Positions 37,569 through 63,982 of a stretch of 64,000 nt of DNA are shown piece after piece. Made by a program: the position numbers and the translations under genes. A model generated the notes under the pieces. That model was given only the letters and a program-made list of their open reading frames with translations, was not told the DNA's origin and did not search any database. Each line of letters opens with the position of its first letter. The first letter of the stretch is position 1. The DNA comes from Campylobacter concisus (GTDB taxonomy: Bacteria > Campylobacterota > Campylobacteria > Campylobacterales > Campylobacteraceae): the NCBI RefSeq assembly GCF_002913225.1, contig NZ_PPAW01000015.1, forward strand, positions 186,001-250,000. The letters are read 5' to 3'.

Positions 37569-38231
37569 TTAAGCTCTCTCTAAAATTTCCTTTCGCTTTT
37601 GCCAGTCAGGCATATAAAGCGCTAGATAGTCATAAAATTTCTTTGAGTGATCAGGATAGAGAAGATGCACTAGCTCGTGAAATACAACATACTCGATACA
37701 CGCTCTTGGCTTTTTGATAAGCTCTATGTTTAAATTTATATATGATTTATAAGGATTGCAACTCCCCCCCCCACCTCGTCTTCATCTACCTTATTTTTAC
37801 GCTTTTAATGTCTTGTTTTACTATCTTGTTAAACTCTTGCAAGATATTAAAAAAACAGAGCATCGCCTTTTCGTGATACCACTCATAGATCAATTTTTCT
37901 TTTCGCTCTAAGTCGTTTTTATCTTTTACAAATAGCTCAAGATAACCTCTTTGTAGCTTTACGCACTCATATTTTGACTGCACCACTTTTAGCCTATAAC
38001 TTCGCCCAAGATATCTAAAATCCTTGCCGCTTACGTATTCTTTTTGTGGCGTCTTAAACGAGGCAAAAAAAGCACGCTTTTGCGCTATCCATTTGGCTCT
38101 TTTTTTATAATAAATTTTATATGCTCATCGCTTGCCGTTTTTGGCGCGGTTAGGATAGCTTCGCCATTTGGTCTAACTTTTAAGGTAATGTTTTTCACCT
38201 CTTTTTTGATGATTTTCACCTCATTTGACAT
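37569..38231 (-). pseudogene. YgjP-like (DUF45/M48-type) zinc metallopeptidase gene, decayed, with a G9 tract
   Basis: Joining frames gives a full YgjP-type protein: MSNEVKIIKKEVKNITLKV at the start, the family RWGSC motif, and FHELVHLLYPDHS (HExxH) with MPDWQKRK near the end. Three lesions are visible on the coding strand: a run of seven As (complement of 38100-38106) that needs eight, an in-frame TAG shortly before the RWGSC codons, and a run of nine Gs (complement of 37764-37772) that needs 5, 8 or 11. Genes of this family often follow hsdR. The G-run is of the kind that switches phase in Campylobacter, but the other lesions suggest the gene is dead. Confidence 0.75.
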
Positions 38232-44921: not shown

Positions 44922-44922
44922 C

Positions 44923-45510
44923 TTAGTTCTCCTCTTTTTTTATCAAATTTTCAAATATGCTTTTGTGGTATTTTTGCTTTACAGCTATCAAATTTTGTAA
45001 AATTTCGCTCTCTTGGCGGGCTAAATTTAGGTATTTTACTATCTTGTTTTGAGTTTGCAAATTTATGGCTGGTATTTTTATATTATTTAAGCTTGCAACG
45101 CCTATCATCGCTATAGCAGTGCCTGAAACATCTGGCGCAAGGGCTCTTTTAACGGCGCTGCTATTTAGATAATGCGCCACAAAATGCGGATCAAATTTAT
45201 CGCTACTAACCCTTATACGCACCATCAAAGACGTGTAGACGAGGTCGCTATACTCTTTGTCTATATAAACGGCGAAATTCGGCTCTCTAAGTCGCAGCAA
45301 GATATCGCCCTGACTTACTTTATACTCCTCGTTTATCTGCTCGCTAGATATAAATTCGTCCACAAAAGCGTCATCGTAATACGCATCTTCTGTAAACGAC
45401 TTTAGCGATACGATTTTATACGAGTGCTCGGACGGACTATGTGCCTCAGCCTTTTTCCTACTTAACACTAAGCCGGTTTTTATCTCGGCTATTTTGTTTA
45501 AATTTATCAT
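44923..45510 (-). CDS. Single-domain (half) HsdS-like specificity protein
   Basis: 195 residues: one target-recognition domain (KIAEIKTGLVLSRKKAE start, GDILLRLREPNFAVYID, DPHFVAHYLNSSAVKRALA) and one C-terminal helical conserved region (QTQNKIVKYLNLARQESEI). Full HsdS has two of each. It is the first gene of the operon, just before hsdM. Half-S proteins can act as dimers reading a palindromic site, so the locus may have two specificities: this intact one and the broken hsdS. Its promoter and operators are right upstream. Confidence 0.8.
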   Translation of the reverse strand: MINLNKIAEIKTGLVLSRKKAEAHSPSEHSYKIVSLKSFTEDAYYDDAFVDEFISSEQINEEYKVSQGDILLRLREPNFAVYIDKEYSDLVYTSLMVRIRVSSDKFDPHFVAHYLNSSAVKRALAPDVSGTAIAMIGVASLNNIKIPAINLQTQNKIVKYLNLARQESEILQNLIAVKQKYHKSIFENLIKKEEN

Positions 45511-49924: not shown

Positions 49925-49955
49925 GGGTTAGGAGATAAAGCTTCTCCTAAAACCC
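49925..49955. terminator. Bidirectional terminator between DUF1643 and AAA+ genes
   Basis: Inverted repeat GGGTTAGGAGA / TCTCCTAAAACCC (one bulge) lying between the two convergent genes and covering the AAA+ stop codon. Confidence 0.6.
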
Positions 49956-51965
49956 TATCTTCGCACTCTTTTCTTCATTTTTTAGTGCGACTTCAAGCTC
50001 AAGCCTTCGGTAAAAGTCGTCGCCATTTTTTATAGGCCTAAATTTAGCTTGTCTTCTCACGCTGGCAAAGTCTCCAGGCGCTAGCAAGCCTAGGTTTGAG
50101 ACCTTTTTGCTTGCGTTTTCGTCAAATTTGACTTTTAACAGCGCGCACTCTTTTTTAAATAAATTTTGCGCTTGCTCTGGCAGCAAGTATCCAAACTCAA
50201 GCTTTAGATCAAATCTTCTAAGACAGGCTTTATCAAGATTATCTATCAAATTTGTCGTGGCGATAAATATGCCATCAAAGCTCTCCATCTGCACTAGCAT
50301 CTCATTTACTTGAGTTACCTCCCAGCTTCTTGCAGCCATGCTTCTATCTTGCAAAAAACTATCAACTTCGTCAAAGACTAGCACAGCATGTTGATCTTTG
50401 GCTTCTTTGAAGGCTAGTGCTATATTTTTCTCAGTTTCTCCCAGATACATAGATAAAAGATCGCTTCCTTTTTTGATGATGATAGGCTTTTTTAGGCTTT
50501 TAGCGATAAATTTAGCGTAAGCGCTTTTGCCAGTTCCAGGCACACCGTAAAGGCATATCCTTGCGTTTTTGCTTTCTTTTATGCCTTGAATTAGCTCGGT
50601 TAGGTCGCAGTCTGAGTTTACAAAATTTGGATCATAGCTACTTGGCAGATCAACGCTTGGCTTCTCGTCTTTTTCTATCTCATCGTATCCTTGTGCTTTT
50701 AAAGTGTTGCTTATCACTCGCTCAAAGGCTTTGTTTTTATCTTTTGTGTTTAAATTTGAAACGACTAAGCTAGCGTTACTAACGACTGCTGGGGCTACAA
50801 ATTGATTTTTAGCTAGCTTTTTTACGAGTTTACTATCTATCAAATTTTCACTATATTTTTTTATGATCTTTGCTCTTACATCTTCAGTTGGTATGCCTAT
50901 CTCTATGGCTAGGTTAAACCTTCTAACTACGGCTTCATCCATATCAAGGATATTATTTGTTATCCAGATAGTTGGCACTTCGTTAGTCTCAAGAGATCTA
51001 TTTATAAAGGCTTTGCCATACTGCCTTTTCTCGTCATTATTTGTGTTAAATATATCTTCTGCTTCGTCATACATGAGCAAATTTGATCCAGTAGACAATA
51101 CGTTTTGTGCAAGGCAATATGACCTTAGCCTTCGATCCTCAGTCGCATATCCGTATTCGTCATCATAAGCTACTTCATAAAGCTTTAAATTTAGCTCACT
51201 GGCTATCACTTTACTAAGCTCAGTTTTACCAGTTCCTGCTGAGCCGTATAGAAGCACATTTACTCCTTTTTGCTTTTTGCGAATAGCATTTTTTAGAAAC
51301 GAGAGTAAAATTTTCACATCTTCTTTTATATGAGGATAGTTTTTTGTAGTTAAATTTGTCTTGCTACATGGCTTTATCGCACTTTCAAATATCTCGTCCA
51401 TGCTTTCACATTTAACAAACAAATCACACATAAAGTTATTATTTATGACATCGATTTTATATTTTAGGTTATGCACATTATTTTCTAGTTTTACAATCGA
51501 AGTCTTGGCAAAGATTCCATCTTTTCTAAAGGCTTTTTGAACATCGCTGAAACGTAAATTTAGTATCTTTGAGATGGCTTTTGTGGCTTGTATGTTGTTT
51601 AGATCTCCTAGTAAACTGCAAGCATTAGATATCACTTCGTAGTTGTACATGATCGCAACAAATCTCAAAATATCTCTCTCGGTACTATTTATACCTAAAT
51701 TTTCTTGAAGTAAATTTAGATTGTGTTCAAGATCTTTTAGTCCGCATGAAATTTGACTTTTTTCAATAATTTCAAATCTGTTTTTAAGATTTTGAATCTC
51801 TTCTTCTTTGGGCTCTTTTGACTCGATACCCAAAAAATCTAAAACATCGTCACATCCGCTTCTTAGTAACTCTTTTTCTCCTCCAAGATTAAAAATAGTA
51901 CGAAGTGTCCAAAGTGTCGTAAGCTCATATATCTCGCTATCTACGTAAAAAATCTCTTTTTCCAC
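49947..51965 (-). CDS. Tandem AAA+ ATPase
   Basis: 672 residues. A helical N-terminal domain (about 1-210) is followed by two AAA+ modules: Walker A GSAGTGKT (241-248) with Walker B LLMYDEAED (296-304), and Walker A GVPGTGKS (474-481) with Walker B VLVFDEVDS (528-536). Each ends with an RRF box (VVRRFNLAIEI; CLRRFDLKLEF). This is the Cdc48/FtsH-like core without a protease, so it probably remodels or unfolds a partner. The start is GTG with AAGGA upstream. The promoter carries the regional palindrome at 52014-52027. I recognise no named family. Confidence 0.8.
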   Translation of the reverse strand: MEKEIFYVDSEIYELTTLWTLRTIFNLGGEKELLRSGCDDVLDFLGIESKEPKEEEIQNLKNRFEIIEKSQISCGLKDLEHNLNLLQENLGINSTERDILRFVAIMYNYEVISNACSLLGDLNNIQATKAISKILNLRFSDVQKAFRKDGIFAKTSIVKLENNVHNLKYKIDVINNNFMCDLFVKCESMDEIFESAIKPCSKTNLTTKNYPHIKEDVKILLSFLKNAIRKKQKGVNVLLYGSAGTGKTELSKVIASELNLKLYEVAYDDEYGYATEDRRLRSYCLAQNVLSTGSNLLMYDEAEDIFNTNNDEKRQYGKAFINRSLETNEVPTIWITNNILDMDEAVVRRFNLAIEIGIPTEDVRAKIIKKYSENLIDSKLVKKLAKNQFVAPAVVSNASLVVSNLNTKDKNKAFERVISNTLKAQGYDEIEKDEKPSVDLPSSYDPNFVNSDCDLTELIQGIKESKNARICLYGVPGTGKSAYAKFIAKSLKKPIIIKKGSDLLSMYLGETEKNIALAFKEAKDQHAVLVFDEVDSFLQDRSMAARSWEVTQVNEMLVQMESFDGIFIATTNLIDNLDKACLRRFDLKLEFGYLLPEQAQNLFKKECALLKVKFDENASKKVSNLGLLAPGDFASVRRQAKFRPIKNGDDFYRRLELEVALKNEEKSAKIGF

Positions 51966-52013
51966 GACAAATTCCTTTTGCTTTTGTTTGAAGCTATTTT
52001 ACTCGGCATAAAA

Positions 52014-52027
52014 GACATTTTTATGTC
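52014..52027. promoter_or_regulatory. GACA-N6-TGTC palindrome in the AAA+ gene promoter
   Basis: GACATTTTTATGTC; on the minus strand TGTC is followed by 12 nt and then TAAAAT, the likely -10 of the AAA+ gene. Copy 1 of the regional operator. Confidence 0.7.
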
Positions 52028-52096: not shown

Positions 52097-53377
52097 TCAC
52101 TCCTGTGTATCGCTGCTATATGGTAGCTCAAGGGCTTTTATATTTGCTACCGCATTTCCAGCGATGCCCTTTATAGAGCCGTACATACTTATGGTGTTAT
52201 CTAGTACCTTTTCGATTTGTTTCTCTCTTTGCTTCCATATCTTTTGAATCGCGCGCTTTTCGCTATCTAGGTCACTTTGCATGGTTGAAAATGCCTCAAC
52301 TATCGCTTCTATTTGCATTTTAAACTCATTGCTGGTTAAAAAGTGGTAGAGCAAGCTCATCTTGTCACTTTTGTTCTCTTGCGCGATCAAGACGTGGTGT
52401 ATCCTTATGAGTTGTTCTCTTAAAACAGCGCTTAAGCCTTTAAATTCCTCAAACGTACAGATCCAAACATCTTCATATAGCCCCATCCTTTGCATATCAC
52501 TTGGCATAGCATCAGTAACTATGACACCGATATCAGCACCTTTTTCTCTCATGTCAGCCTTAAATTTCTCTATCCAAGACTTTTGAAATTCTTTCGTTCT
52601 CTTGCTCTCATAATATATCGTTCCGCAGTTTTGAGACTCTCTTGTATGCACGATCTGCACGCAGTCAGCACCTCTTGCACCTTTTTTGATCTCATCAATA
52701 GTATCAAATGGAAATTTCTCCCTCAGCCACTCTTCTATCGCGAGCTCCTGCACCTCACCTTGAAGCTGCATGCTGCCTTGCTCGGCCTTTCTTTGGGCTA
52801 TTTGAAGTTGCTCTTGAAGCTGTTTTAGCTGTTCCTCTTTTTGTCTAAATTTAAGCTCATTTTGCTCATCTGCAGCCTTTTGTATCTTCTCTTTTTCTTC
52901 TTTTAGCTTTTCATTTAATGCCAGCTCGGCCTTTGCAGTTATGGCAGACTCCATCTCCTCTTTTTCCCTTTGAAGCTGCAAAATTTGAGCCTTTGTAATA
53001 TTTAGCTCTTTTACTTGATTTGACTTCTCTTCAAGCTGTTTTTGCAAGAGCGCCACCGACTCATTTTGCTCGTCAAGTATCTCTTTTCGCAGCTCCTCTT
53101 GAAGTCTTGCTCTTTCCATTTTTAGCTGTATTTGCGTAGCTTTTTTGATTTCTTCCTCAAATTTCTCTTTTTGATCTTGCAGTTGCTGCTCTTTTGCTCT
53201 TAAACTCTCAAAATAAGCCTCCTGTTCCTTTCTTTTAGCCTCAAGTTCAGCTTCAAGCTGCTTCTTTTGGGCTAGGTATTCACCTTTATATTTTCCCTCT
53301 AGCTGATGATATAAGGCGTCATTTATATCTATTTCACACCCACAGTTTGGGCACTTTATCGTTGTTTGATTTGTCAT
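52097..53377 (-). CDS. DUF2130 domain-containing protein with N-terminal zinc ribbon
   Basis: 426 residues. A zinc-ribbon start (CPNCGCEID, residues 9-17) is followed by a very long Glu/Lys/Gln coiled coil (about 35-205), then a C-terminal DUF2130 domain (FDTIDEIKKGARGADCVQIV, CGTIYYESKRTKEF, VIVTDAMPSD) which has a nuclease-like strand pattern (E-S-K). Function unknown; a link to DNA processing is possible. Third gene of the operon starting at 54914, 43 nt after its neighbour. Confidence 0.85.
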   Translation of the reverse strand: MTNQTTIKCPNCGCEIDINDALYHQLEGKYKGEYLAQKKQLEAELEAKRKEQEAYFESLRAKEQQLQDQKEKFEEEIKKATQIQLKMERARLQEELRKEILDEQNESVALLQKQLEEKSNQVKELNITKAQILQLQREKEEMESAITAKAELALNEKLKEEKEKIQKAADEQNELKFRQKEEQLKQLQEQLQIAQRKAEQGSMQLQGEVQELAIEEWLREKFPFDTIDEIKKGARGADCVQIVHTRESQNCGTIYYESKRTKEFQKSWIEKFKADMREKGADIGVIVTDAMPSDMQRMGLYEDVWICTFEEFKGLSAVLREQLIRIHHVLIAQENKSDKMSLLYHFLTSNEFKMQIEAIVEAFSTMQSDLDSEKRAIQKIWKQREKQIEKVLDNTISMYGSIKGIAGNAVANIKALELPYSSDTQE

Positions 53378-53420: not shown

Positions 53421-54317
53421 TTAAATTTCATAGTATTCATCCCAGCAAAGTGTCATATCAACAGAGCCTATACGAAGTATATCTTTGATCTTATTGATAT
53501 GTGTGTTATTGTTAAAAGCTGCAAATAGATAGCAAAAATATGCCTTCTTATCAAAATAGACAGAGCTACCAAAATATTCATTGCAGTTTTGCGTCCAGCG
53601 GCTCTTTTGCTTGCTCATTTCGCCAGGAACGATAGGCTCATTGATGATGGCTAAGAAATTGTCGTCATTTTCATCATAATCTGGATCATCTTCGCGCAAG
53701 CGAAAGACCAAACGAAATTCCATAGCATAATCCTCGATAAATCCACCCTCAAACCTTGCTTTTAGCCTGTTTTCAAGCATTTTTGCATCTCTTATTAGGA
53801 TATCTTGGTAGCTAGCTAGCGCTTTATTTATCTTCTCTATCTGCTCCCACTGATCTTTGTTGGCATCAGAGATATACTCTTCTCTCTCGCTACACTCTAG
53901 CTTTTTTAGGCAAAGGTCTATAGGCGTATAGTCGTAGTATGAGCGAAGCTTGCCCTCCATCCTGTCGATAGTTAAAATTTCATCCCAGCTAAGATCCGTA
54001 TGGTCATATAGGCAGTGGTAAAACCAGCAGTGCCACTCGCCAGACATCTCATGCGTGGGCCAGTTTCTAAATTCGTTTTGATTTTCCGTATAAAAGTAGT
54101 CATCTATGTGATTCATGAACTGCCCATATCGCATAAGAAGTTCATCCTTTGAGTAAAAATAGAGCAATAGCTCACAAAAATGATCACATGCCTCTTTTAC
54201 ATCTTTTACCGACATATTTATCTGCTTTGCACGTGGCACGACACGGCGCTCAAGGTCATAGAGCCTTTCGTTTATGCTATTTAGCTTTCGCCTTTGCTCC
54301 TTTGTAAATTGTCCCAT
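53421..54317 (-). CDS. Unknown protein, second gene of the DUF2130 operon
   Basis: 298 residues, not recognised. A basic N-terminus (FTKEQRRKLNSINERLYDLE) predicts a coiled helix; later segments are acidic (RLREDDPDYDENDDNF) and rich in Trp, Tyr and Cys (EWHCWFYHCLYDHTD). No signal peptide or membrane helix. It sits 9 nt after the 195-aa gene and 43 nt before the DUF2130 gene, so it should be co-made with both. Confidence 0.7.
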   Translation of the reverse strand: MGQFTKEQRRKLNSINERLYDLERRVVPRAKQINMSVKDVKEACDHFCELLLYFYSKDELLMRYGQFMNHIDDYFYTENQNEFRNWPTHEMSGEWHCWFYHCLYDHTDLSWDEILTIDRMEGKLRSYYDYTPIDLCLKKLECSEREEYISDANKDQWEQIEKINKALASYQDILIRDAKMLENRLKARFEGGFIEDYAMEFRLVFRLREDDPDYDENDDNFLAIINEPIVPGEMSKQKSRWTQNCNEYFGSSVYFDKKAYFCYLFAAFNNNTHINKIKDILRIGSVDMTLCWDEYYEI

Positions 54318-54326
54318 TTTTGTCCT

Positions 54327-54914
54327 TTAAAATTTAATCACCGCCACCTGTTCGGCGATCTCTTTATCTGTAAAATTTCCGTTTGTATCAAGTGAATAAT
54401 TTTTGCCTAGAAAATAGAGCTTAAAGCCAGTTATGGCACCAAAAATAGGCAGAGTTTTCGTTTTTTGATAGTAGCTTTTAGTGATCTTTGAGATAGCTTT
54501 TAGCTGCTCATCTAATGCTTTAAAACAAAGCTCATCTAAAAATGGTGTTAGGCTGATATATCTTAAGTGCTGCGCCATAGCAAGGGCAAATATAGGCTCA
54601 CTCTTGCGCTTAAAATCCGTATCTATATAGATATATGAGCCTCTAAATTTTACTCGCTCGTTGTAGAGTTTTTGCACCTCGCCAAGCTCTGCGTCTATGT
54701 TAAGAGCAAAGTGCTTGCTAAGGGCTAGGATGAGCGTTTCTGAGCTGTGCGCCCAGTCAAAGTGCCCCTTTGTGATAAACTCATCAAGGCTCTTTGCCGC
54801 CTCTAAATTTGCAAGTGCTCTTGTGAAATTTTGCTCTCTAACATAGCCAAGTGCTTTTGAGAGCGCCTTTTTGTCGCTGTTTTGTGTGAGAATTTTAAGT
54901 TGCTCGTAGATCAT
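54327..54914 (-). CDS. Unknown protein, first gene of the DUF2130 operon
   Basis: 195 residues, not recognised; mostly helical with hydrophobic repeats (ALSKALGYVREQNFTRALAN resembles TPR-like helices). No signal peptide. The promoter shows the regional palindrome at 54985-54997, with TGTC, 12 nt, and a perfect TATAAT (54967-54972) on this strand. Confidence 0.7.
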   Translation of the reverse strand: MIYEQLKILTQNSDKKALSKALGYVREQNFTRALANLEAAKSLDEFITKGHFDWAHSSETLILALSKHFALNIDAELGEVQKLYNERVKFRGSYIYIDTDFKRKSEPIFALAMAQHLRYISLTPFLDELCFKALDEQLKAISKITKSYYQKTKTLPIFGAITGFKLYFLGKNYSLDTNGNFTDKEIAEQVAVIKF

Positions 54915-54984: not shown

Positions 54985-54997
54985 GACAAAAAATGTC
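54985..54997. promoter_or_regulatory. GACA-N5-TGTC palindrome between the DUF2130 operon and the deiminase-like gene
   Basis: GACAAAAAATGTC serves both directions: to the left TGTC-N12-TATAAT (exact), to the right TGTC-N14-TAAAAT. Copy 2 of the regional operator. Confidence 0.75.
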
Positions 54998-55048: not shown

Positions 55049-55846
55049 ATGCAGCCAACTATCCTACTTTCCACACTTTTGGCAAAACATCACGCCAAAA
55101 CAGCCAAAAGCTTGTGCCAGATATTTGACAGATACGGGGTCAAATACGAGTTTTTAGAGACTAAAGACATCTGGATGAGGGACTTTATGCCGATTTTGCT
55201 TGATGATGGGCGCCTTATCTCTTACGACTACGATCCAGACTACCTAAAAGATGAAAAATATAGTCACCTAAGAACAAATATCCAGCCATTAAAAGAGCAT
55301 ATAAATTTAGCCCTAGACGGCGGAAATTTCGTAAGGTTTGGAGGCAAAGCCATCATGACTGATAAAATTTTTAGAGAAAATCCACTGAAGATAAAAACCG
55401 AGATAGCTGAAATTATAAAGCAAAAATGCGCGCTAAATGAGCTCATCATCATACCAAAGCAGCCTTACGATATGCTAGGCCACAGTGACGCCATGGTGAG
55501 GTGGATAGATGAAAATAGCGTGTTAGTAAATGACTTTTCAAATGAGAGTAAAAGCTTTAATGATAGGCTTATAAAAGCCCTTAAAAAGAGTGGTTTGGAT
55601 GTGAAATTTATGAAGTATAAAGATGGATTTTTCACTAAAAAGAGAGACTGGGGCGCTTACTTAAATTTTATTAAAATTAAGGATATTTTAATAGTTCCAA
55701 TATATGGCATAGATGATGACGATGTTGCGCTGCAGCAGATCAAGAAATTTTATAGTGACTATAAAGTAGAGACGATAAATTTAAGCGAGATAATAGAGCT
55801 TGGCGGTGCTCTACACTGCATAACGGCGGAGAAATTTGGGCGGTAG
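55049..55846 (+). CDS. Agmatine deiminase/peptidyl-arginine deiminase-like protein
   Basis: 265 residues, much shorter than agmatine deiminases (about 350-370). The guanidine-group modifying fold shows WMRDF (Asp45), DGGN (90-93), GHSD (His145, Asp147) and a C-terminal GGALHC with the catalytic Cys257. So all residues of the catalytic set are present, but the N-terminal part is trimmed. Substrate unknown: agmatine, peptidyl arginine or a free guanidino compound. AGGAGC precedes the ATG. It ends in a two-way hairpin shared with the HNH gene. Confidence 0.85.
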   Translation: MQPTILLSTLLAKHHAKTAKSLCQIFDRYGVKYEFLETKDIWMRDFMPILLDDGRLISYDYDPDYLKDEKYSHLRTNIQPLKEHINLALDGGNFVRFGGKAIMTDKIFRENPLKIKTEIAEIIKQKCALNELIIIPKQPYDMLGHSDAMVRWIDENSVLVNDFSNESKSFNDRLIKALKKSGLDVKFMKYKDGFFTKKRDWGAYLNFIKIKDILIVPIYGIDDDDVALQQIKKFYSDYKVETINLSEIIELGGALHCITAEKFGR

Positions 55847-55860: not shown

Positions 55861-56625
55861 TTATTTCTCTATATCTGGCTCCATGCTTGTATCAAATTTA
55901 GTGTTCCAAATTTCTGGGTCTGGCACGTCTTTTATTTCTTCTTCGCTATACCCAATAGCCTTCAGTCTTTCATTCCAAGTCTTTCTAATACCTTCAGCAA
56001 TAGGCTTAAATTCTTCTGGTGAAAATTCATCGGTTTTTGCATTATTACACCAGTAGCAAGCCATGCAACAATTCTTTTTGCTATACTCCAAATTTGGTAG
56101 CATTCTATCTATCTCTAGCGTATATCCGCGGGTATCGCTTCTTTTATTATTTAGCTTGCCTTTTTTGCCAAGCTCCTCGATCTGAGCTAGGCTTATACCG
56201 CAATATGAGCAAGTTGTTTTGTCAAGCATCTTATTAAAATCTGTTTCAGAAAACTTTTCTTTAAAATCATTTTCATATTCTTTTTCCAGTGCATCTAAAA
56301 TTTCTGTAAATTCTTTAGATTTTTGAACAAAATATTGTCTTTGTTCTATAATCATAATGTTTAACTCTTTGCCCTTGTGCTTTATTTTACTTTTATCACT
56401 ATTTATCTCAAGTTGATAGTATTTACTACTATATAAATTTGCTACTTCATTAGTAACCTTAAAATTTTTAAAATCCTTTTTTATAGTTTCAATATTACTC
56501 ATAATGTAGTAATCATTGCATCCATTTTCATCCAAGTTGTCCCAAGAAAAAGCCTTGTCAAACAAAAATAGCTGAACTTTTGTTTTAAAACTATCCTCCA
56601 TTTTAGTTTTATATTTCTTTGTCAT
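55861..56625 (-). CDS. HNH-like zinc-binding nuclease-family protein
   Basis: 254 residues. N-terminal half unknown; a Lys/Glu-rich helix (SKEFTEILDALEKEYENDF) leads into an HNH-like zinc fold with CSYC (139-142), YTLEIDRM (168-175), Asn185 and CYWCNNAK (190-197). The usual catalytic His of the E-I-D-H motif is Arg here, so nuclease activity is questionable and a structural or degenerate role is possible. The promoter has the regional palindrome at 56671-56684 with TAAAAT 13 nt away. Confidence 0.7.
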   Translation of the reverse strand: MTKKYKTKMEDSFKTKVQLFLFDKAFSWDNLDENGCNDYYIMSNIETIKKDFKNFKVTNEVANLYSSKYYQLEINSDKSKIKHKGKELNIMIIEQRQYFVQKSKEFTEILDALEKEYENDFKEKFSETDFNKMLDKTTCSYCGISLAQIEELGKKGKLNNKRSDTRGYTLEIDRMLPNLEYSKKNCCMACYWCNNAKTDEFSPEEFKPIAEGIRKTWNERLKAIGYSEEEIKDVPDPEIWNTKFDTSMEPDIEK

Positions 56626-56670: not shown

Positions 56671-56684
56671 GACACAAAAATGTC
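56671..56684. promoter_or_regulatory. GACA-N6-TGTC palindrome between the HNH and SIR2 genes
   Basis: GACACAAAAATGTC. Rightward TGTC-N12-TATACT (exact) drives the SIR2-WYL-Fic-phosphoesterase operon; leftward TGTC-N13-TAAAAT drives the HNH gene. Copy 3. Confidence 0.78.
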
Positions 56685-56729
56685 TGATCAACTCATTATA
56701 CTTACCAAAATTTCTTAAAAAGGATAAAA

Positions 56730-57548
56730 ATGCAAGAGAAGATAGACAGGATCAAAAAGATCATCGCGGAGGCCGATGCGGTCATCATCACAGCAGGTGC
56801 TGGAATGGGTGTTGATAGTGGGTTGCCTGATTTTAGGGGAGATCTAGGGTTTTGGAGAGCCTATCCACTTTTAAGGGAGAAAAATTTAAGCTTTGAAGAT
56901 ATGGCAAATCCGCAGTGGTTTTTAGATGATCCAAAGCTAGCATGGGCATTTTACGGGCACAGGCTAAATTTATACAAAAAGACAGAACCTCATGAGGGTT
57001 TTAGGCTACTTTTAGATCTTGTAAAAAGCAAAAACGACAACTACTTCGTCTATACTTCAAATGTCGATGGTCACTTTCAAAAAGCCGGCTTTAGCGAAGA
57101 TAAAATTTATGAGTGCCATGGCTCTATCCACTACTCTCAGTGCATCCACAAGCGTGATGGCGCTATATGGCAGACTTGTAGCGATATAAAAGTAGATGAA
57201 GAGAAATTTATAGCTTTAGATATGCCAGTTTGCCCAGAGTGTGGCTGTGTGAGCCGCCCAAATATCGTGATGTTTTACGACTGGATGGTAAATACAAGGC
57301 GAATAAACGAGCAGTATAGAAGATATGAAGCGTGGCTGGAGCAAAACAAAGATAGCCGCTTTGTGATCATAGAGCTGGGCGCTGGGCTTGCGGTGCCAAC
57401 AATTAGAAATTTTGGTGAGAAATTCGTTAAACGCTCCAAAAAAGCAACTCTTATCCGCATAAACCCACGAGATAACTACATCTCGCAGTATATCGGCATA
57501 AGTCTAAAATGTGGCGCGCTAGATGGTCTTAGGCAGATATTATGCTAA
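56730..57548 (+). CDS. SIR2-family NAD-dependent protein deacylase-like
   Basis: 272 residues. NAD site GAGMGVDSGLPDFRG (23-37), TSNVDG (109-114), catalytic His130 in CHGSI, and zinc Cys at 138, 150, 168 and 171. These suggest an active deacylase or NAD-consuming enzyme. Some SIR2 domains deplete NAD in phage defence, but this one lacks a sensor fusion, so deacylation is equally likely. First gene of the four-gene operon; the next gene overlaps in part. A 25-codon remnant of a second copy lies at 62641-62715. Confidence 0.88.
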   Translation: MQEKIDRIKKIIAEADAVIITAGAGMGVDSGLPDFRGDLGFWRAYPLLREKNLSFEDMANPQWFLDDPKLAWAFYGHRLNLYKKTEPHEGFRLLLDLVKSKNDNYFVYTSNVDGHFQKAGFSEDKIYECHGSIHYSQCIHKRDGAIWQTCSDIKVDEEKFIALDMPVCPECGCVSRPNIVMFYDWMVNTRRINEQYRRYEAWLEQNKDSRFVIIELGAGLAVPTIRNFGEKFVKRSKKATLIRINPRDNYISQYIGISLKCGALDGLRQILC

Positions 57549-57576
57549 AAAAGACATCCTCTAGTCCTAATTTGGA

Positions 57577-57582
57577 TATAAT
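57577..57582 (+). promoter_or_regulatory. Possible -10 box inside the SIR2 gene 3' end, for WYL
   Basis: TATAAT lies 20 nt before the likely WYL ATG. The regional palindrome is absent here. A separate weak promoter would allow a basal supply of regulator. Confidence 0.35.
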
Positions 57583-57601
57583 CCCCAAACTAGGAGAGCA
57601 A

Positions 57602-58519
57602 ATGAAACCCATCATAACCAAACAAGAAAACAGCAAATTTGAACGTATAAATTTTATAGCCCTAAAGCTAAGAGAGAGACCGCACACGATAAAAGAGCTA
57701 ACAGCCATGCTTGGAGTGACCTCAAAGACCATCCAGCGCGACCTTTACGACACGCTAAGAGAGTATGGCGCCGTCAAAAAGGGACACTACTGGAGCCTAA
57801 ACGACGAGGACGCGAGCGACGGACTAAACGGCGATGATAGAGTGGTGCTAAATATCCTTGATAACGTGGCAAAAAACATGGGATCAAATTTTTACAGCAA
57901 GGCTCACGTGCTTCTAGAGCAAATTTCTCAGCAGCTAAACCACCCGATACTGACAAACATAAACAACGAAAAGCTAAGCGAGGAGGATCTTGTAAATTTT
58001 CAAGCGCTTGAGGATGCTATAAGAGAAAAAGCGGAGATAACATGCACGTATAATGGCTTTGAGTTTCTTGTAAAGCCTCTAAAACTGGCACTTTTTGAGG
58101 GATTTTGGTATCTGCTCTTGCTTGATAGCAAAAAGGGCAATAAATTTAAGAAATTTCACCTAAAGAGCATAAAAGATATAAAGCGTAGTGGGGATAAATT
58201 TGAGCTAAGTAGCGAGCTAGATGAGCGTGTAAAGGCGATGAATTCAGCATGGGCAAATTTAGAAGCCCCAAAAACAGCAAGGCTACTGCTAGCGCCAGAA
58301 GTAGCAAAATACTTCGAGCGAAAGCCACACGCAAAGCAGCGCATAACTGGCCAAGATAGCGACGGCTCAGTCGAGATAGAGATAGAATTTACGCACATAA
58401 TGGAGATAAAACCGCTCATATACTACTACCTGCCATTTATCAAAGTGCTTGAGCCAAAGGAGCTGGCTGACGAGGTCAAAAAAGATGTCAGCGAGTATCT
58501 AAAAGAGATAAATTTCTAA
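57602..58519 (+). CDS. WYL-domain transcriptional regulator
   Basis: About 305 residues from the ATG with AGGAGAGCAA directly upstream; an earlier ATG 20 codons upstream overlaps the SIR2 stop. N-terminal helix-turn-helix (about 10-60, HTIKELTAMLGVTSKTIQRD), then a WYL domain (about 130-215, LKLALFEGFWYLLLLD), then a C-terminal part with HAKQRITGQDSDGSVEIEIE as in the WCX region. WYL regulators sense ligands, often nucleic acid, and commonly control defence or DNA-damage genes. It is the best candidate to bind the six local palindromes. Confidence 0.9.
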   Translation: MKPIITKQENSKFERINFIALKLRERPHTIKELTAMLGVTSKTIQRDLYDTLREYGAVKKGHYWSLNDEDASDGLNGDDRVVLNILDNVAKNMGSNFYSKAHVLLEQISQQLNHPILTNINNEKLSEEDLVNFQALEDAIREKAEITCTYNGFEFLVKPLKLALFEGFWYLLLLDSKKGNKFKKFHLKSIKDIKRSGDKFELSSELDERVKAMNSAWANLEAPKTARLLLAPEVAKYFERKPHAKQRITGQDSDGSVEIEIEFTHIMEIKPLIYYYLPFIKVLEPKELADEVKKDVSEYLKEINF

Positions 58520-58522
58520 GCC

Positions 58523-59059
58523 ATGGGCAGCAATGATAAAGAGACACTAGAGCTTATTAGATACTACAAAAAGAGCTGGTTGCTACTGCAAAAATTTGAT
58601 GATGGCTCACTTGGTCTTTACAAAAGCGATGTGGGCGAAAATTTTACTCTTGGATATGACGAGGTGCTAACAGCAGTGGATGAGCTAAAAAGAGAGCTTA
58701 TAAAAAGGGGCGAGGCGTCAAATATCTTTGGCGTTCAAAAGGCAGATGAATTTGAAGGGATAATAAAAAATATCTATCAGACATTTGGCGGATGTGATCT
58801 TTTAACAAGCCCGCAAGAAAAAGCGGCAAATTTGATCTACTACATCATCAAAGACCACCTCTTTAGCGACGGCAACAAACGCATCGGATCATTTATATTT
58901 ATCTTGTTTTTATCAAAGTGCAGGCTTCTTTATAAAAGTAGTGGCGAGCTAAGGATAAACGACAACGCCCTTGTTGCACTTGCACTGTTCATTGCTCAAA
59001 GCGAGCCAAAGCAAAAAGATATGATGGTAAATTTGATCACAAATTTACTTGTGGATTAA
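58523..59059 (+). CDS. Fic domain protein
   Basis: 178 residues. The Fic motif HLFSDGNKRIG (His112, DGNKR 116-120) is complete, so AMP transfer to a protein hydroxyl (or a related transfer) is plausible. N-terminal ~95 residues are a possible target or regulatory part (FTLGYDEVLTAVDELKRELI). No clear (S/T)xxxE(G/N) inhibitory helix is visible in it. It lies 3 nt after WYL in the operon, suggesting co-control rather than a classical toxin-antitoxin pair. Confidence 0.82.
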   Translation: MGSNDKETLELIRYYKKSWLLLQKFDDGSLGLYKSDVGENFTLGYDEVLTAVDELKRELIKRGEASNIFGVQKADEFEGIIKNIYQTFGGCDLLTSPQEKAANLIYYIIKDHLFSDGNKRIGSFIFILFLSKCRLLYKSSGELRINDNALVALALFIAQSEPKQKDMMVNLITNLLVD

Positions 59060-59075
59060 AGGCTGATAGATACAA

Positions 59076-59651
59076 ATGAGTGGCTTAAAACTTTTTCACG
59101 CTAGCGATCTGCACTTTGGTTCTGGCTATTTTGACTATATTTTAGCCCTTCAAGACAAATTTGACATTTTTTGTTTTAGCGGTGATTTTCTATGCAAAGA
59201 GAGCGCACAAGAAAAAGAGCAAACTACTTTATGGCTAAAAAGCTTTAAAAAGCCGGTATTTGTGTGTTCTGGCAACCACGATATGCCGCCTTCTTGGCTA
59301 AAGTCTATAAGTGGCATATACTCTGATGGCGCTATAAAGACTATAAACGGCGTTAAATTTGGCTGCGTGCCTTACTTGTGTGATGATCTGCTTGAATTTG
59401 CAGAGTGCGATATCTTGCTGACCCACGTCCCACCAGCAAAGACAAGCACGAGCATCAGTAAAAATGACAAGGATCACGGAGATATGGAGCTTGCAAGGCT
59501 TATTAAAAATAATCTTTTAAATGTAAAGATCATCCTTTGTGGGCATATACATGAGCCAAAATCTCGCACGGACGTTTTAAACGGAGTTAAAATTTATAAC
59601 TCTGCAAGTAGCGGTGCAAAAGAGCCATTTTATCAAGAGATAGAGATATAG
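59076..59651 (+). CDS. Metallophosphoesterase family protein
   Basis: 191 residues. All five family blocks are visible: ASDLHFG (Asp11, His13), FSGDF (35-38), SGNHD (65-69), LLTHVPP (His117) and CGHIHE (155-160). Short, without extra domain, so a phosphodiesterase of small substrates or nucleic acid; related folds act in nucleotide and RNA repair. Last gene of the SIR2-WYL-Fic operon; its end overlaps the convergent 110-aa gene by 19 nt. Confidence 0.88.
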   Translation: MSGLKLFHASDLHFGSGYFDYILALQDKFDIFCFSGDFLCKESAQEKEQTTLWLKSFKKPVFVCSGNHDMPPSWLKSISGIYSDGAIKTINGVKFGCVPYLCDDLLEFAECDILLTHVPPAKTSTSISKNDKDHGDMELARLIKNNLLNVKIILCGHIHEPKSRTDVLNGVKIYNSASSGAKEPFYQEIEI

Positions 59652-59965
59652 TTTTCTATCATTTTAGCCACCTCTTGATGCTCGTATGGCGTCATTTCTA
59701 TATCTAAAATTTGAAAACATATCTCTTTTATAAATTCGCTCTCACAGCCAAAGTCGTTTTTTAGATTTTGCAGTATAAATTTAGCCTCAGTAACAACATC
59801 ATACGCATTATTTAATGCCTTAACGGCTTGCCTGTAAAAATCTTTTGACATTTTCGTATTGCTATATTTAGTAAAATTTGCATTATTTACGTAGTCATAG
59901 CTTGACTTAGCCTGCGCCAAAAAAGAAAACTCATCATACTCTTGCCAAATTTCTTGCTCGTTCAT
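59633..59965 (-). CDS. Small unknown protein (110 aa)
   Basis: 110 residues, acidic, mostly helical with aromatic residues (EIWQEYDEFSFLAQAKSSY, FYRQAVKALNNAYDVVTEA). Not recognised. Its size and helical layout resemble HEPN-like proteins but the RxxxxH motif is not present, so this is not a claim. The promoter carries the palindrome at 60002-60014 with TGTC-N12-TATAAT. Confidence 0.6.
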   Translation of the reverse strand: MNEQEIWQEYDEFSFLAQAKSSYDYVNNANFTKYSNTKMSKDFYRQAVKALNNAYDVVTEAKFILQNLKNDFGCESEFIKEICFQILDIEMTPYEHQEVAKMIENYISIS

Positions 59966-60001: not shown

Positions 60002-60014
60002 GACAAAATTTGTC
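60002..60014. promoter_or_regulatory. GACA-N5-TGTC palindrome, leftward promoter
   Basis: GACAAAATTTGTC; on the minus strand TGTC-N12-TATAAT exactly, for the 110-aa gene. Copy 4. Confidence 0.75.
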
Positions 60015-60034: not shown

Positions 60035-60048
60035 GACATTTTTCTGTC
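60035..60048. promoter_or_regulatory. GACA-N6-TGTC palindrome, rightward promoter
   Basis: GACATTTTTCTGTC; TGTC is followed by 12 nt and TAATAT, then the AGGAGG ribosome-binding site of the 218-aa gene. Copy 5, next to copy 4 with 20 bp between them. Confidence 0.75.
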
Positions 60049-60092: not shown

Positions 60093-60749
60093 ATGGTTTG
60101 CACCAAAGAAGAAAAAGAGCTTTTGGTAGCTTTTGATCAAAAGCTACTTGAGATACAGCGCGAGATGACAGCAGAGTATCTGCGCATTAAGGAGCTTTTT
60201 AAGACATATCTTGACCATGATAAAGATATGATAGACATTGTCTGCGAGGTTGTTTTTTATATGAAAGACTACGAGGAGGAAATTCTCTCTGTTGAGTTAC
60301 AGGACTTTTACTTTGAAGATGATGATCTTAGTGGTATAGAGCTATGCTACGACGGGCGACCACATGGCTTTGACTGCTCGATCATACTCACTAAGATGTC
60401 TAGCGCCTCAATAACTATAGAAGAAATTTTATCTATTGATGATATATGTTGGCATTTTGAGCCAAGGCTATACTACAAAAAGGAAAAAATAGGTGCCTCG
60501 CTCAACGAGAAACTCATTTGGATGCCTATTGTAAGCTCTGATGACTACAACATATATCTGCCAAAGGGTGTTAGAGAGGCAAACACCTTTAAAGACTTTG
60601 ATAATATGTATATTCGTAACAGTTTTTTGACCTCTTGGTTTGATTTTGAATATAAAATTTTGCCAAAAAGTTATAAAAATTTTATCACCCGTTTTAGACA
60701 AATACCCACTCAAAAATTTTATAAACATCTTTTAGCTTATCAAATGTGA
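60093..60749 (+). CDS. Unknown protein (218 aa)
   Basis: 218 residues, not recognised. N-terminal helix (KEEKELLVAFDQKLLEIQRE), acidic and aromatic middle (LQDFYFEDDDLSGIELCYD), basic C-terminus (YKILPKSYKNFITRFRQIP). No membrane helices. AGGAGG stands at the optimum distance from its ATG, suggesting high expression when induced. The promoter carries palindrome copy 5. Confidence 0.65.
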   Translation: MVCTKEEKELLVAFDQKLLEIQREMTAEYLRIKELFKTYLDHDKDMIDIVCEVVFYMKDYEEEILSVELQDFYFEDDDLSGIELCYDGRPHGFDCSIILTKMSSASITIEEILSIDDICWHFEPRLYYKKEKIGASLNEKLIWMPIVSSDDYNIYLPKGVREANTFKDFDNMYIRNSFLTSWFDFEYKILPKSYKNFITRFRQIPTQKFYKHLLAYQM

Positions 60750-60815: not shown

Positions 60816-62564
60816 CTATAGTAACTCTCGTAATTTGCTTATCATTAGCTTTTCACGCTTTTCATAAAAATCATCAAAATTATCTAAAGATAAATCAACA
60901 TCAGGTATTAAATGATCCTTTAAAAATTTACTCTTGTCTTTATTTCTGCATTCGCTTTCAACCCACTCTTCAAGACTCTTATCATTTTTAGCCATGTTTT
61001 CGTTTGCATCTAGTAACTGTAAATTAGGGAGAGCGTCGTACATGGAAAAATCGTAGTATTCTTTTTTATTTTTCTCCATCAATTTTTTATACTCTTTGTA
61101 CTTACTTTCTGGATGCAAATGGTCCTTGTGAAAGTTATTCTTTGTGTCTAAATTTGGATATAAGATAGATAAGACGGCAAAGGCTTCTGGACTATTTTTT
61201 CTATACAGCATCAAATCTTGCAAAAAGTCATCATCGATAGTATTGTTATATTTATAAGACTTTTCAATACCCTCTAACGGAAATTCATCAATGTTGTCGT
61301 CAAAAAATACTTTACCGTCAAAATCCTTTTTAAATACTTTTCTCGTTGCGGTTAAAACGCTATCTGCGCTTCCTCCAAACGGCTTAAATAGCGTAGCCCT
61401 TAGTAAGTATTTTTTTATAACTTCTCTAGTTTGTTTTTGCCCAGTACCGTGAACTATGGAGCTAGCCAAATTTTTATGATATACATAATAAAGTACCGGT
61501 AAAATTGCATTATTTGAACTCATTGTTTGCGCATTAAACCCAAAATTTTCGAGCAAATCAAAAATGCTATGAAAGGCCATTTTTATGTTATCCCATTGCT
61601 GTTCGATATTTTCTATAAATCCGTTATTAAAACTACCTATGTCAAATTTTATATTTTCGTGATATAAATACAAAAATGCTTTTAGTACTAAATCTTTCGA
61701 GATATTAAAGCCTTTAGAGTCATTTATAAAATCGACAAGTTCATTGATCTCTTTTCTTGCATCTTTTTGTTTCCAGTTTGCAATAGCATAGCTAAATAAG
61801 ATATCAGAATAGCTAAGGTGTGTCCCGCCCGAGTTAATACGAATAAATATATTCACTGCTTTTTCTGGATTTTGGTCGTCTTCTTGGTAGAAGCTGATAA
61901 TATCTTCTGAGAATATTCTTTTTTCGAAAAGCGCCAAATTTTTAGTTTCTTTATTAGACAGTTCAAATTTTCCTTGTATTTCCACAGCCTTCACTTCATC
62001 ATCACTATGAGGATATATATCCTTACATCTAAACCATTTTTGTCCAAATTTATCCGTATAAATCTTTTTACTACCGGTTTCAGCTTTTTCCAACCATAAA
62101 AATTCGTATTCTACGTTATCATTTTTAGGCTCTTGACTTGCGGTTAGGTTAAAATAAAGCTCACAAATTTTAAATTTATCGTCCGTATTTTCCCATTTTT
62201 TATACGGTCTATGAGTATGGTATTCGCCGCAAAGCGCTAAATATAGAGAAGTTAATCTTTGTTGCCCGTCTAGTATGGCCGAAAATTCGCCAATACTCTT
62301 GGTGGGCTTGTATTCGTTATGGGTATGATACCATTCTCGAAAGTATCTCAAAAAACTGTAAAACTTCCATTGCTCTGCACTTTCGCTTCTAACTTTCCAA
62401 AAAAGCATAGAGCTAATAGGGTAGCCTCGCATAATAGAATCAAATAGTCTCTCTACTTGCTCTCCAGACCAAACATACTCCCTTTGAAATGCGGGAATAA
62501 GATATTTGTCCGCCCCTATTTCTCGTATTGCCTCTGCTATTTTTATTTGCTGAAACCCAGCCAT
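60816..62564 (-). CDS. DUF262/DUF1524 protein (GmrSD-type, type IV restriction-like)
   Basis: 582 residues. N-terminal DUF262 (IPAFQREYVW near 24-33, LDGQQRLTS at 98-106, INSGGTHLSYSD) is an NTP-using ParB-like fold; the C-terminal DUF1524 HNH nuclease has HKDHLHP (479-485). In GmrSD and relatives this fusion cuts modified phage DNA. Here both are in one protein. AAGGGG before the ATG. Its promoter lacks the regional palindrome, so it may be a later insertion into the regulated cluster. Confidence 0.87.
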   Translation of the reverse strand: MAGFQQIKIAEAIREIGADKYLIPAFQREYVWSGEQVERLFDSIMRGYPISSMLFWKVRSESAEQWKFYSFLRYFREWYHTHNEYKPTKSIGEFSAILDGQQRLTSLYLALCGEYHTHRPYKKWENTDDKFKICELYFNLTASQEPKNDNVEYEFLWLEKAETGSKKIYTDKFGQKWFRCKDIYPHSDDEVKAVEIQGKFELSNKETKNLALFEKRIFSEDIISFYQEDDQNPEKAVNIFIRINSGGTHLSYSDILFSYAIANWKQKDARKEINELVDFINDSKGFNISKDLVLKAFLYLYHENIKFDIGSFNNGFIENIEQQWDNIKMAFHSIFDLLENFGFNAQTMSSNNAILPVLYYVYHKNLASSIVHGTGQKQTREVIKKYLLRATLFKPFGGSADSVLTATRKVFKKDFDGKVFFDDNIDEFPLEGIEKSYKYNNTIDDDFLQDLMLYRKNSPEAFAVLSILYPNLDTKNNFHKDHLHPESKYKEYKKLMEKNKKEYYDFSMYDALPNLQLLDANENMAKNDKSLEEWVESECRNKDKSKFLKDHLIPDVDLSLDNFDDFYEKREKLMISKLRELL

Positions 62565-62640
62565 ATTCTACCCCTTGTAAAATTTTATATTATCATTATA
62601 ACTAAATTTATATTTTTATAAGAATTAATATCCAAATAAT

Positions 62641-62715
62641 GCCAGCACCTGCTGTGATAACTATGGCGTCTGCGTTTTTAATGATCTCTTTTGCTTGAAG
62701 TATTGTGTCGTGCAT
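62641..62715 (-). pseudogene. 5' remnant of a second SIR2 gene
   Basis: From the ATG at 62715, 25 codons read MHDTILQAKEIIK then NADAIVITAGAG, matching the start of the SIR2 protein at 56730 (IKKIIAEADAVIITAGAG). Similarity ends right after the GAG of the NAD loop and a stop follows after ten unrelated codons. It begins 3 nt after the end of the nuclease frame, so a former nuclease-SIR2 operon was cut, presumably when the DUF262 gene arrived. Confidence 0.7.
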
Positions 62716-62718
62716 GAC

Positions 62719-63926
62719 TTATACCTCGATTAATTTAGCGATTTCATCAGCTAATGGCTCTAGCTCATCTTTCATTTTTATTAGTTCATCCACTAGTTCG
62801 GCTTCGCTATATTTATAAAAAATTATCTCTCTCAAAAACTGATCTTTTTTTAGCCACTTCCATCTAGCAAATCTTGTACCTATATTCCATTCTCTAGAAA
62901 TTTTAACTTGTATGCTATCAACGTATGCCTTATTTATTCTATCTGTATCATAAGCGAGTCCGATATATGGATATAAAAAATTTTTACTATCAAACTCTAA
63001 AACAAATGCCAATAAATAGCCATTATCCCAACTTCTTTTAAAAATATATATAGGTGTAAAATATCTACTAGCATCAGCTTCTTCTATTTCTACGCACCAT
63101 TCTTGTGATAATCTTTTTCGAGTTCAATTTTTACATTTGACATAAATTCATTAAGTCTATTTGCATTGGCCATATCAAAGTATTTACTTCTTATTTCATC
63201 GACTAAGTCATAGTTTTTAAGTATTATTTCGATTATTTTTCTTTCATCCATCTGCACTCCTTTATATTTTCCATAAATTTTTTCAATTACGTTTTTGTAT
63301 TGCGATATCACGGCGGCTAAATTTGCCAAATTTCCAGCCTCATCAAGACATAAGCCAAGCCACGCCATTATCTCTTTGTCGTATGAAATCGCCTTAAAGT
63401 TAGCCACTTCATCAACGTTTTTTTCTAAAAATTTGCCGTCTTCGATTTTTAGCCCACTCAAACTATAGCCGCTAGGCTCTCGCCCCTGTGGCGATAAAAA
63501 TAGTACGTAAATTTCAGCTTCGCTGTCGTTTTCTTTTTGGATGGTTTCTATATACCTTTTTATTTGGGCTTCTTGATCGCCGGCATTTATTTTATTTTCT
63601 AAAATAATATGCTTCGCGCCGTCAGTTATATAGATATCTATGTTTTTGTATTCTTTATAGGCTTTTGCGCTTTGCGGGTCTAGTCCAAAATTTTCTAGCC
63701 CGCATGCTTTTATAAAAAGCTCTAAGAATAACTCTTTTTGATAATGTGACGAATTTGGATCAAGTAGTGAATAGATAAAGCGTGAGTGTAATCGCACCTC
63801 ATCATTTATATCAAGAAGTACTAAAAATAAGTTATAGTCGTTATTGCCGCGTAGTTTTTTGATCTCTAGCTTGTCATTTAGGATTTTGATTTGCTTTAGC
63901 ATAGATTCAAATTTTTCTATATCCAT
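62719..63926 (-). pseudogene. PD-(D/E)XK nuclease family gene with a 1-nt frameshift
   Basis: The first frame (63926-63090) has the nuclease core: KNIDIYITDGAKHIILENKI (Asp, Glu-x-Lys). It ends at ELEKDYHKNGA. In the next frame the protein carries on as ELEKRLSQEWCVEIEEA through YIFKRSWDNGYLLAFVLEFD and stops at KLIEV (62719). One more A in the A5 run (complement of 63114-63118) would join them into a ~402-residue protein, the normal length for this family. The nuclease core precedes the break, so a shortened product could still be made. Palindrome copy 6 lies in its promoter. Confidence 0.75.
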
Positions 63927-63969: not shown

Positions 63970-63982
63970 GACACTTTTTGTC
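63970..63982. promoter_or_regulatory. GACA-N5-TGTC palindrome in the nuclease gene promoter
   Basis: GACACTTTTTGTC; on the minus strand TGTC-N12-TATAAT exactly. Copy 6; a divergent partner gene, if any, is outside the window. Confidence 0.75.

What the first reader, a model, noticed from the sequence alone, without database searches (positions are those of the whole stretch)
56730..59651. SIR2-WYL-Fic-metallophosphoesterase operon
Four tightly packed genes combine an NAD-using enzyme, a ligand-sensing regulator, a protein-modifying Fic enzyme and a phosphoesterase. I know of no named system with this composition. With the regulon around it (AAA+, DUF2130, HNH, deiminase-like), it looks like a stress or defence response in which NAD, nucleotide transfer and phosphodiester chemistry are switched on together. 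As Campylobacterota generally lack LexA, a WYL-run damage response is a tempting model.
Basis: inference. Interest (0 to 1): 0.75.

Follow-up and report, generated by a model that had tools for sequence, protein, structure and literature searches.

The report
One switch runs a defence island
A single regulator gene in a Campylobacter, sitting between an NAD-using enzyme gene and a protein-modifying enzyme gene, appears to control at least six promoters of a swappable anti-virus gene island through one DNA mark at a fixed distance from the promoter, probably as an on-switch, in a group of bacteria that lacks the usual DNA-damage switch LexA.

Summary
The four genes are real, but the operon is not the unit. 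A de novo scan shows a shared operator, GACA-N5/6-TGTC, with its inner half-site exactly 12 nt before a TANNNT -10 box. It stands at six promoters in 49.9-64.0 kb: AAA+, hyp195-hyp298-DUF2130, SIR2-WYL-Fic-MPE, hyp110, hyp218 and PDDEXK_4. Six of the eight such sites in the genome lie in 12 kb around its only clear WYL regulator. The rule predicted 15 sites in three Arcobacter plasmids found by WYL similarity alone. Targets vary between species: AAA+, DUF2779, SIR2, hyp195, PDDEXK_4, PAD, HNH, SLOG, cREC. This is a WYL-controlled, modular defence/stress island. The geometry equals that of the mycobacterial damage activator PafBC (tTGTCRgtg-N8-TAnnnT) and resembles DriD, the best fold match, so an activator is more likely than a BrxR-type repressor. 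However, the arginine pair PafBC needs for ssDNA is missing in all family members, so the signal is unknown. A genome-wide SOS substitute is not supported. The exact four-gene order is limited to the C. concisus group; SIR2-WYL reaches one more species.

The parts
56671..56684 (+). operator GACACAAAAATGTC of the SIR2-WYL-Fic-MPE operon; -10 TATACT at 56697-56702, 12 nt downstream
   Evidence: kept in G027, G024, G035, G020
52014..52027 (-). operator GACATAAAAATGTC of the AAA+ gene; -10 TAAAAT 12 nt downstream (51996-52001)
54985..54997 (-). operator GACATTTTTTGTC (5-nt spacer) of hyp195-hyp298-DUF2130; -10 TATAAT 12 nt downstream
60002..60014 (-). operator GACAAATTTTGTC of hyp110; -10 TATAAT 12 nt downstream
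60035..60048 (+). operator GACATTTTTCTGTC of hyp218; -10 TAATAT 12 nt downstream
63970..63982 (-). operator GACAAAAAGTGTC of the PDDEXK_4 gene; -10 TATAAT 12 nt downstream
57553..57566 (+). operator-like GACATCCTCTAGTC (one mismatch) with TATAAT 10 nt downstream, probable own promoter of the WYL gene; conserved in five Campylobacter relatives besides the window
56730..57548 (+). SIR2-family NAD-dependent enzyme with catalytic His (HG, residue 130) and zinc-type cysteines; nearer to deacylases/SirTM than to NADase effectors
57542..58519 (+). WYL regulator: wHTH-helical-WYL-WCX; likely start 57602
58523..59059 (+). Fic/Doc-like protein, equal to the C-terminal half of RhuM-Fic (PDC-S23); motif HLFSDGNKR
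59076..59651 (+). calcineurin-like metallophosphoesterase with intact motifs
49947..51965 (-). tandem AAA+ ATPase (second domain like IetA); full-length orthologs in 7 of 8 Campylobacter genomes with the WYL ortholog and 0 of 29 without
52097..53377 (-). DUF2130 protein in the hyp195-led operon
53421..54317 (-). hyp298, no family match
54327..54914 (-). hyp195, conserved target family in several Campylobacterota families; confident fold with no PDB match
55049..55846 (+). PAD_porph (agmatine-deiminase-like); own operator in G003 (L044 15468), none at strict spacing here
55861..56625 (-). HNH-type protein, divergent from SIR2; the G003 homologue has its own operator (L044 13575)
59633..59965 (-). 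hyp110, operator-led
60093..60749 (+). hyp218, operator-led
62719..63926 (-). PDDEXK_4 nuclease (PDC-S26 defence candidate), split in two frames here (63090-63926 and 62719-63012)
60816..62564 (-). GmrSD/HEC-05 defence candidate within the island, no operator of its own found

Best explanation
The WYL protein is the single switch of a mosaic defence/stress island. As a dimer it binds GACA-N5/6-TGTC, which occupies the place of the -35 box (about -38 to -25, inner TGTC at -28 to -25), always 12 nt from the -10. When its WYL-WCX part binds a signal produced by infection or nucleic-acid damage, it helps RNA polymerase use these -35-less promoters and turns on several short operons at once: SIR2 and other NAD/ADP-ribose enzymes, a Doc-like Fic, a phosphoesterase, AAA+ ATPase, PD-(D/E)XK and GmrSD nucleases. 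Regulator and operator stay constant while the effectors are exchanged. Shown by computation: genes, operators, fixed spacing, linkage and reuse across Campylobacterota. Inferred: binding by this WYL protein, activation rather than repression, and anti-phage purpose. Unknown: the ligand.
For: Of all 256 four-base half-sites, GACA gives 6 sites in window 48-64 kb against at most 1 for any other; spacers 5 and 6 only; offset 12 stands out (37 against 11 or fewer). 9 of 13 independent promoters, chosen without regard to spacing, have TANNNT at offset 12 (p=3.5e-11 per offset). Arcobacter plasmids, found by WYL similarity alone: 14 palindromes where shuffles give 0.33; 14 oriented N6 full sites where 0.03 are expected. 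G000 has 8 full sites, 6 of them in 12 kb at the only clear WYL gene. AAA+ ortholog in 7 of 8 WYL-positive and 0 of 29 WYL-negative Campylobacter. Geometry equals PafBC tTGTCRgtg-8nt-TAnnnT (PMC5656591); DriD sites lie at a constant distance from -10 and overlap -35 (PMC12340889); SiwR binds at -26 (PMC10693628). Best fold match DriD (1e-13), then PafBC (5e-11), then CapW and BrxR (2e-8 and weaker); the sequence profile ranks the same way. Targets match defence candidates PDC-S26, HEC-05 and PDC-S23.
Against: No binding or expression data. The repressor BrxR also sits near -35 (-51 to -27; PMC9122589). The arginine pair essential for ssDNA in PafBC (and its counterpart in SiwR) is absent in all 35 homologs examined. 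WYL genes' own promoters often depart from the 12-nt rule. Several WYL-positive genomes of other families show few or no strict sites. Most WYL-positive Campylobacter are one species complex, so counts there are not independent.
Confidence: 0.62

Rival explanations
1. BrxR/CapW-type repressor: the same operators block the promoters until a phage-derived ligand releases the WYL protein.
For: WYL regulators next to defence islands that have been tested as BrxR/CapW repress (PMC9122601); the BrxR site overlaps -35; several of these promoters have G at -14 and good -10 boxes and could work alone.
Against: A repressor does not need one exact distance to the -10; here one distance holds in many unrelated promoters and gene families. 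Fold and profile are closer to DriD and PafBC.
Confidence: 0.25
2. The WYL protein senses ADP-ribose derivatives or RNA ends with cyclic phosphates, and the island is an NAD/ADP-ribose or RNA-repair response, as proposed for other WYL-linked operons.
For: Targets and neighbours across species include SIR2, Macro, ADP-ribosylglycohydrolase, SLOG, cREC, 5'-nucleotidase and phosphoesterase genes, and one related plasmid locus has RtcB; Iyer et al. 2022 predict WYL sensors of ADPr and sirtuin-phosphoesterase RNA repair (PMC9503650); the ssDNA arginines are missing.
Against: Many targets are DNA nucleases or restriction-like proteins; no RNA ligase in the window region read; their ADPr-countering class was defined by absence of a sirtuin.
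Confidence: 0.25
3. Genome-wide DNA-damage response that replaces LexA in Campylobacterota.
For: Promoter geometry of PafBC and DriD; Campylobacter and Helicobacter have no LexA ortholog (PMC2390758).
Against: Only two of eight genomic sites lie outside the island, and one of those is conserved in genomes without this WYL gene; 29 of 37 Campylobacter genomes lack the ortholog; ssDNA residues missing.
Confidence: 0.06
4. SIR2-WYL-Fic-MPE is one dedicated four-part system.
For: Tight packing under one operator.
Against: Exact order only in the C. concisus group; Fic lost in G035; SIR2-WYL alone in G003; RhuM-Fic with SIR2 in G053.
Confidence: 0.07

Closest known systems
PafBC (mycobacterial ssDNA-activated WYL activator)
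   Same: TGTC half-site, 12 nt to TANNNT, -26 position; WYL-WCX fold
   Different: PafBC is a heterodimer with a single half-site and a genome-wide DNA-repair regulon; its essential arginine pair is missing here; here a palindrome and a local defence-type regulon
DriD (Caulobacter) and SiwR (Mycobacterium)
   Same: single-gene WYL activators, palindromic site at -35/-26; DriD sites at a constant distance from -10; DriD is the best fold match
   Different: different target genes; arginine pair known from SiwR and PafBC absent here
BrxR / CapW
   Same: wHTH-WYL-C-terminal domain regulator inside defence islands
   Different: characterised as repressors; weaker sequence and fold match; usually one upstream promoter, here several operons
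WYL/Nudix-regulated ARG systems (Iyer et al. 2022)
   Same: WYL regulator with ADP-ribose enzymes, phosphatases, nucleases and variable modules
   Different: those lack sirtuins; no operator was given in the section read
RhuM-Fic PDC-S23 candidate
   Same: Fic domain homologous over its full length
   Different: the RhuM half is missing in the window; a fused form with SIR2 occurs in G053 (L050)

Membership tests
PafBC | TGTC -26 motif 12 nt before TANNNT | tested here: met
PafBC | two paralogous subunits encoded together | tested here: not met
   one clear WYL gene in the genome; the only other match is 20 bits in a 749-aa frame
PafBC | arginine pair of the WYL domain (RLxR) needed for ssDNA | tested here: not met
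   HLKS, LLRQ, YLKN and the like in 35 homologs
PafBC | regulates DNA-repair genes across the genome | tested here: not met
   six of eight sites in the island
DriD/SiwR-type WYL activator | palindrome overlapping -35/-26, for DriD at a constant distance from -10 | tested here: met
DriD/SiwR-type WYL activator | activates transcription when bound to ssDNA | not testable with these tools
   needs in vitro transcription
BrxR family | wHTH-WYL-C-terminal dimerisation domain | tested here: met
BrxR family | closest relatives are BrxR/CapW | tested here: not met
   DriD and PafBC rank above BrxR and CapW by profile and fold
BrxR family | represses its promoter | not testable with these tools
   no expression data
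SIR2 NADase defence effectors (ThsA-like) | effector-type SIR2 without zinc-type cysteines | tested here: not met
   best matches are deacylases and SirTM; Cys 138, 150, 168, 171 and catalytic His present
AMPylating Fic | HxFxxGNGR motif | tested here: not met
   HLFSDGNKR, Doc-like
IetAS | IetA-like AAA+ with an adjacent subtilisin-like protease | tested here: inconclusive
   AAA+ matches IetA over one domain; no family search named a protease in the neighbouring proteins tested
ARG-centred WYL systems | ADP-ribosylglycohydrolase without a coupled sirtuin | tested here: not met
   no ARG among the window proteins tested and SIR2 present; ARG occurs in relative L048

The most novel reading that the evidence does not exclude
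Campylobacterota carry a class of WYL switch proteins that reuse the PafBC-type TGTC-N12-TANNNT promoter geometry but sense a signal other than ssDNA, and that serve as a plug-in control standard: any defence gene that acquires the 30-bp operator promoter joins the inducible arsenal. This would be a LexA-independent inducible immune response in a group without SOS.
Probability: 0.35. Interest if true: 0.82.

Novelty: new variant of a known kind. Interest (0 to 1): 0.66.

Why it matters
How bacteria coordinate whole defence islands is poorly known, and most WYL regulators have been tied to one promoter. Here one regulator, one operator and one exact promoter geometry link at least six promoters and predict unseen sites in other genera, so the regulon of any Campylobacterota genome with such a WYL gene can now be read from sequence. 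It gives a concrete, testable candidate for inducible immunity in bacteria that lack LexA, and points to several unnamed target families (hyp195, DUF2779, the tandem AAA+, hyp298) as likely defence genes. It also suggests that the promoter geometry of WYL activators is conserved across phyla even where the ligand pocket has changed.

Tried and rejected
One genome-contig scan with the WYL protein found only one near-identical strain. PDB search with the single WYL sequence found nothing; the family profile did. hyp195: confident model but no fold match; no match in plasmids or phages. DUF2779 with WYL: no paper in the open library. Literature searches for WYL in Campylobacter gave nothing relevant. 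Considered and dropped: a genome-wide SOS substitute; a special autorepression geometry of WYL genes (offset 0 in two Arcobacter promoters is confounded by TA following TGTC; the likelier -10 is about 29 nt away). The raw palindrome with one mismatch is not enriched in the window as a whole (14 against 11 expected); only with the -10 spacing, or by exact match in the island, does it stand out. In Betaproteobacteria the related WYL-AAA-SIR2 locus has one palindrome before AAA but no clear -10 at 12 nt, so the spacing rule is claimed for Campylobacterota only.

Full report
What is there. The window is G000:C15:186001-250000; the closest named match is Campylobacter concisus UNSWCS, whose WYL protein is 96% identical. 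They lie in a variable region that begins after a tRNA-Met at 37375-37451 with type I restriction genes and ends beyond the window.

The operator. Comparing the intergenic stretches showed GACA-N6-TGTC at 52014, 56671 and 60035. Laying the promoters side by side showed that each palindrome ends exactly 12 nt before a -10 box. A form with a 5-nt spacer and the same distance to the -10 adds three more promoters, at 54985, 60002 and 63970. So six promoters between 49.9 and 64.0 kb share one architecture: AAA+; hyp195-hyp298-DUF2130; SIR2-WYL-Fic-MPE; hyp110; hyp218; PDDEXK_4.

Is it more than chance? In a scan of all 256 four-base half-sites with the same geometry, GACA gives 6 sites in window 48-64 kb and no other half-site more than 1; in the WYL loci GACA gives 37 sites, the next being A/T runs; offset 12 and spacers 5 and 6 stand out sharply. 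For 13 independent promoters picked by palindrome alone, 9 have TANNNT at offset 12 (p = 3.5e-11 per offset). In the whole genome there are 8 full sites; six lie within 12 kb around the only clear WYL gene. Over 60 genomes the 5-nt form gives 94 matches against 12 for the reversed control, 16 of the 94 being one conserved site unrelated to this gene; the 6-nt form gives 48 against 24 (sums made by hand from the tables).

Out-of-sample test. Arcobacter and Aliarcobacter plasmids were fetched because their WYL protein is about 51% identical. Three of them (L175, L176, L177) hold 14 six-spaced palindromes where shuffles give 0.33, and 14 oriented six-spaced full sites where 0.03 are expected; with one five-spaced site that makes 15, nearly all 41-52 nt before annotated genes: an AAA-VWA operon, the hyp110 gene ahead of PDDEXK and DUF2779, cREC, SLOG, a tandem-AAA relative, hyp204 ahead of a Sir2, and a WYL gene itself. 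In other Campylobacterales families the site stands before AAA+ (G051, G053), DUF2779 (G003, G037, G058) and hyp195 (G026, G058).

Modularity. The exact four-gene order is found in G027, G024 and G020 only; G035 lacks Fic; G003 has SIR2-WYL followed by hyp195-hyp298; G026 has DUF2779-PDDEXK-WYL-hyp195; G053 has RhuM-Fic with SIR2. G051 has AAA, an FtsZ-like protein, two GmrSD proteins, DUF2779 and a Macro domain before WYL; G058 has hyp195, ADP-ribosylglycohydrolase, PAD and WYL. In 37 Campylobacter genomes the AAA+ ortholog occurs in 7 of 8 with the WYL ortholog (60% identity or more) and in 0 of 29 without; SIR2 in 6 of 8 and 0 of 29, apart from broken fragments. Most of these positives are one species complex, so they are not independent. 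Related associations exist beyond the phylum: WYL-AAA-SIR2 in Sphaerotilus and AAA-DUF2779-WYL with a metallophosphoesterase in Diaphorobacter.

How it works. The model of the WYL protein has wHTH, helical, WYL and WCX parts (mean pLDDT 75). The nearest solved structures are DriD and PafBC, ahead of CapW and BrxR, by profile and by fold. PafBC promoters read tTGTCRgtg-8nt-TAnnnT (PMC5656591), which is TGTC-N12-TANNNT, the same half-site and distance as here. DriD sites overlap the -35 element and lie at one distance from the -10 (PMC12340889); SiwR binds at -26 (PMC10693628). With the -10 at -12 to -7, the present operator covers about -38 to -25. An exact distance kept in unrelated promoters fits contact with RNA polymerase, so I favour an activator. 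The repressor BrxR also sits near -35, so this is not proof.

Signal. PafBC needs two arginines (RLxR) to bind ssDNA (PMC11804915); the DriD sequence shows the same motif in the alignment. None of 35 Campylobacterota homologs has them. The ligand is therefore open. The recurring SIR2, Macro, ADP-ribosylglycohydrolase, SLOG, cREC and phosphoesterase genes keep an ADP-ribose or RNA-end signal possible (PMC9503650).

Enzymes. The SIR2 protein is of the deacylase/SirTM kind with zinc-type cysteines, not the NADase type of known effectors. Fic carries HLFSDGNKR and matches the C-terminal half of RhuM-Fic; by analogy with Doc it may phosphorylate rather than AMPylate (inference from family knowledge). 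GmrSD matches HEC-05 (1e-260) and PDDEXK_4 matches PDC-S26 (2e-61), both listed defence candidates.

Own promoter of WYL. Between the SIR2 stop and the likely WYL start (57602) lies GACATCCTCTAGTC, one mismatch from the operator, 10 nt before TATAAT; the arrangement is kept in G027, G024, G035, G020 and G003. The regulator thus probably has a basal promoter of its own.

Verdict. A real, modular WYL regulon with a defined operator; a new variant of a known kind. Activator, moderately likely; anti-phage role, likely from content but untested; damage sensing, open.

Noticed in passing
window 37375-37451 and 38221-45510: tRNA-Met followed by type I restriction genes: the variable region probably starts at this tRNA, a common integration site.
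   Followed up: partly
window about 62630-62715, minus strand: Start of a second SIR2 gene (MHDTILQAKEIIKNADAVIITAGAG...) directly upstream of GmrSD: a remnant; G024 has a whole second SIR2 copy.
   Followed up: partly
window 62719-63926: The PDDEXK_4 gene is split into two frames here, whole (402 aa) in L042.
   Followed up: no
G006:C11:23557, G021:C1:1681435, G003:C1:1671176, G024:C21:31909, G004:C1:1537447: Another clade of WYL genes in Campylobacter has its own operator variant GACAYAACCTGTC at the same 12-nt spacing, next to the WYL gene.
   Followed up: partly
L165 7441-8214 and L194 4799-5890: FtsZ/tubulin-like gene next to the AAA+ gene in G051 and an ftsZ-annotated gene next to a SIR2 in Thiodictyon: possible further partner.
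   Followed up: no
L190, L192: Betaproteobacterial plasmids carry WYL-AAA-SIR2-phosphatase beside BREX genes, and AAA-DUF2779-WYL with a metallophosphoesterase.
   Followed up: partly
L175 1618 and L176 8529: Two Arcobacter WYL genes have the palindrome about 29 nt from a TGTAAAAT/TTGTAAAAT box, unlike their targets.
   Followed up: no
L040 1317-2795: DUF2779 protein looks like a Cas4-like Fe-S nuclease (C..C cluster) with a DEDD-type exonuclease motif (HLDFETF); recurrent operator target.
   Followed up: no
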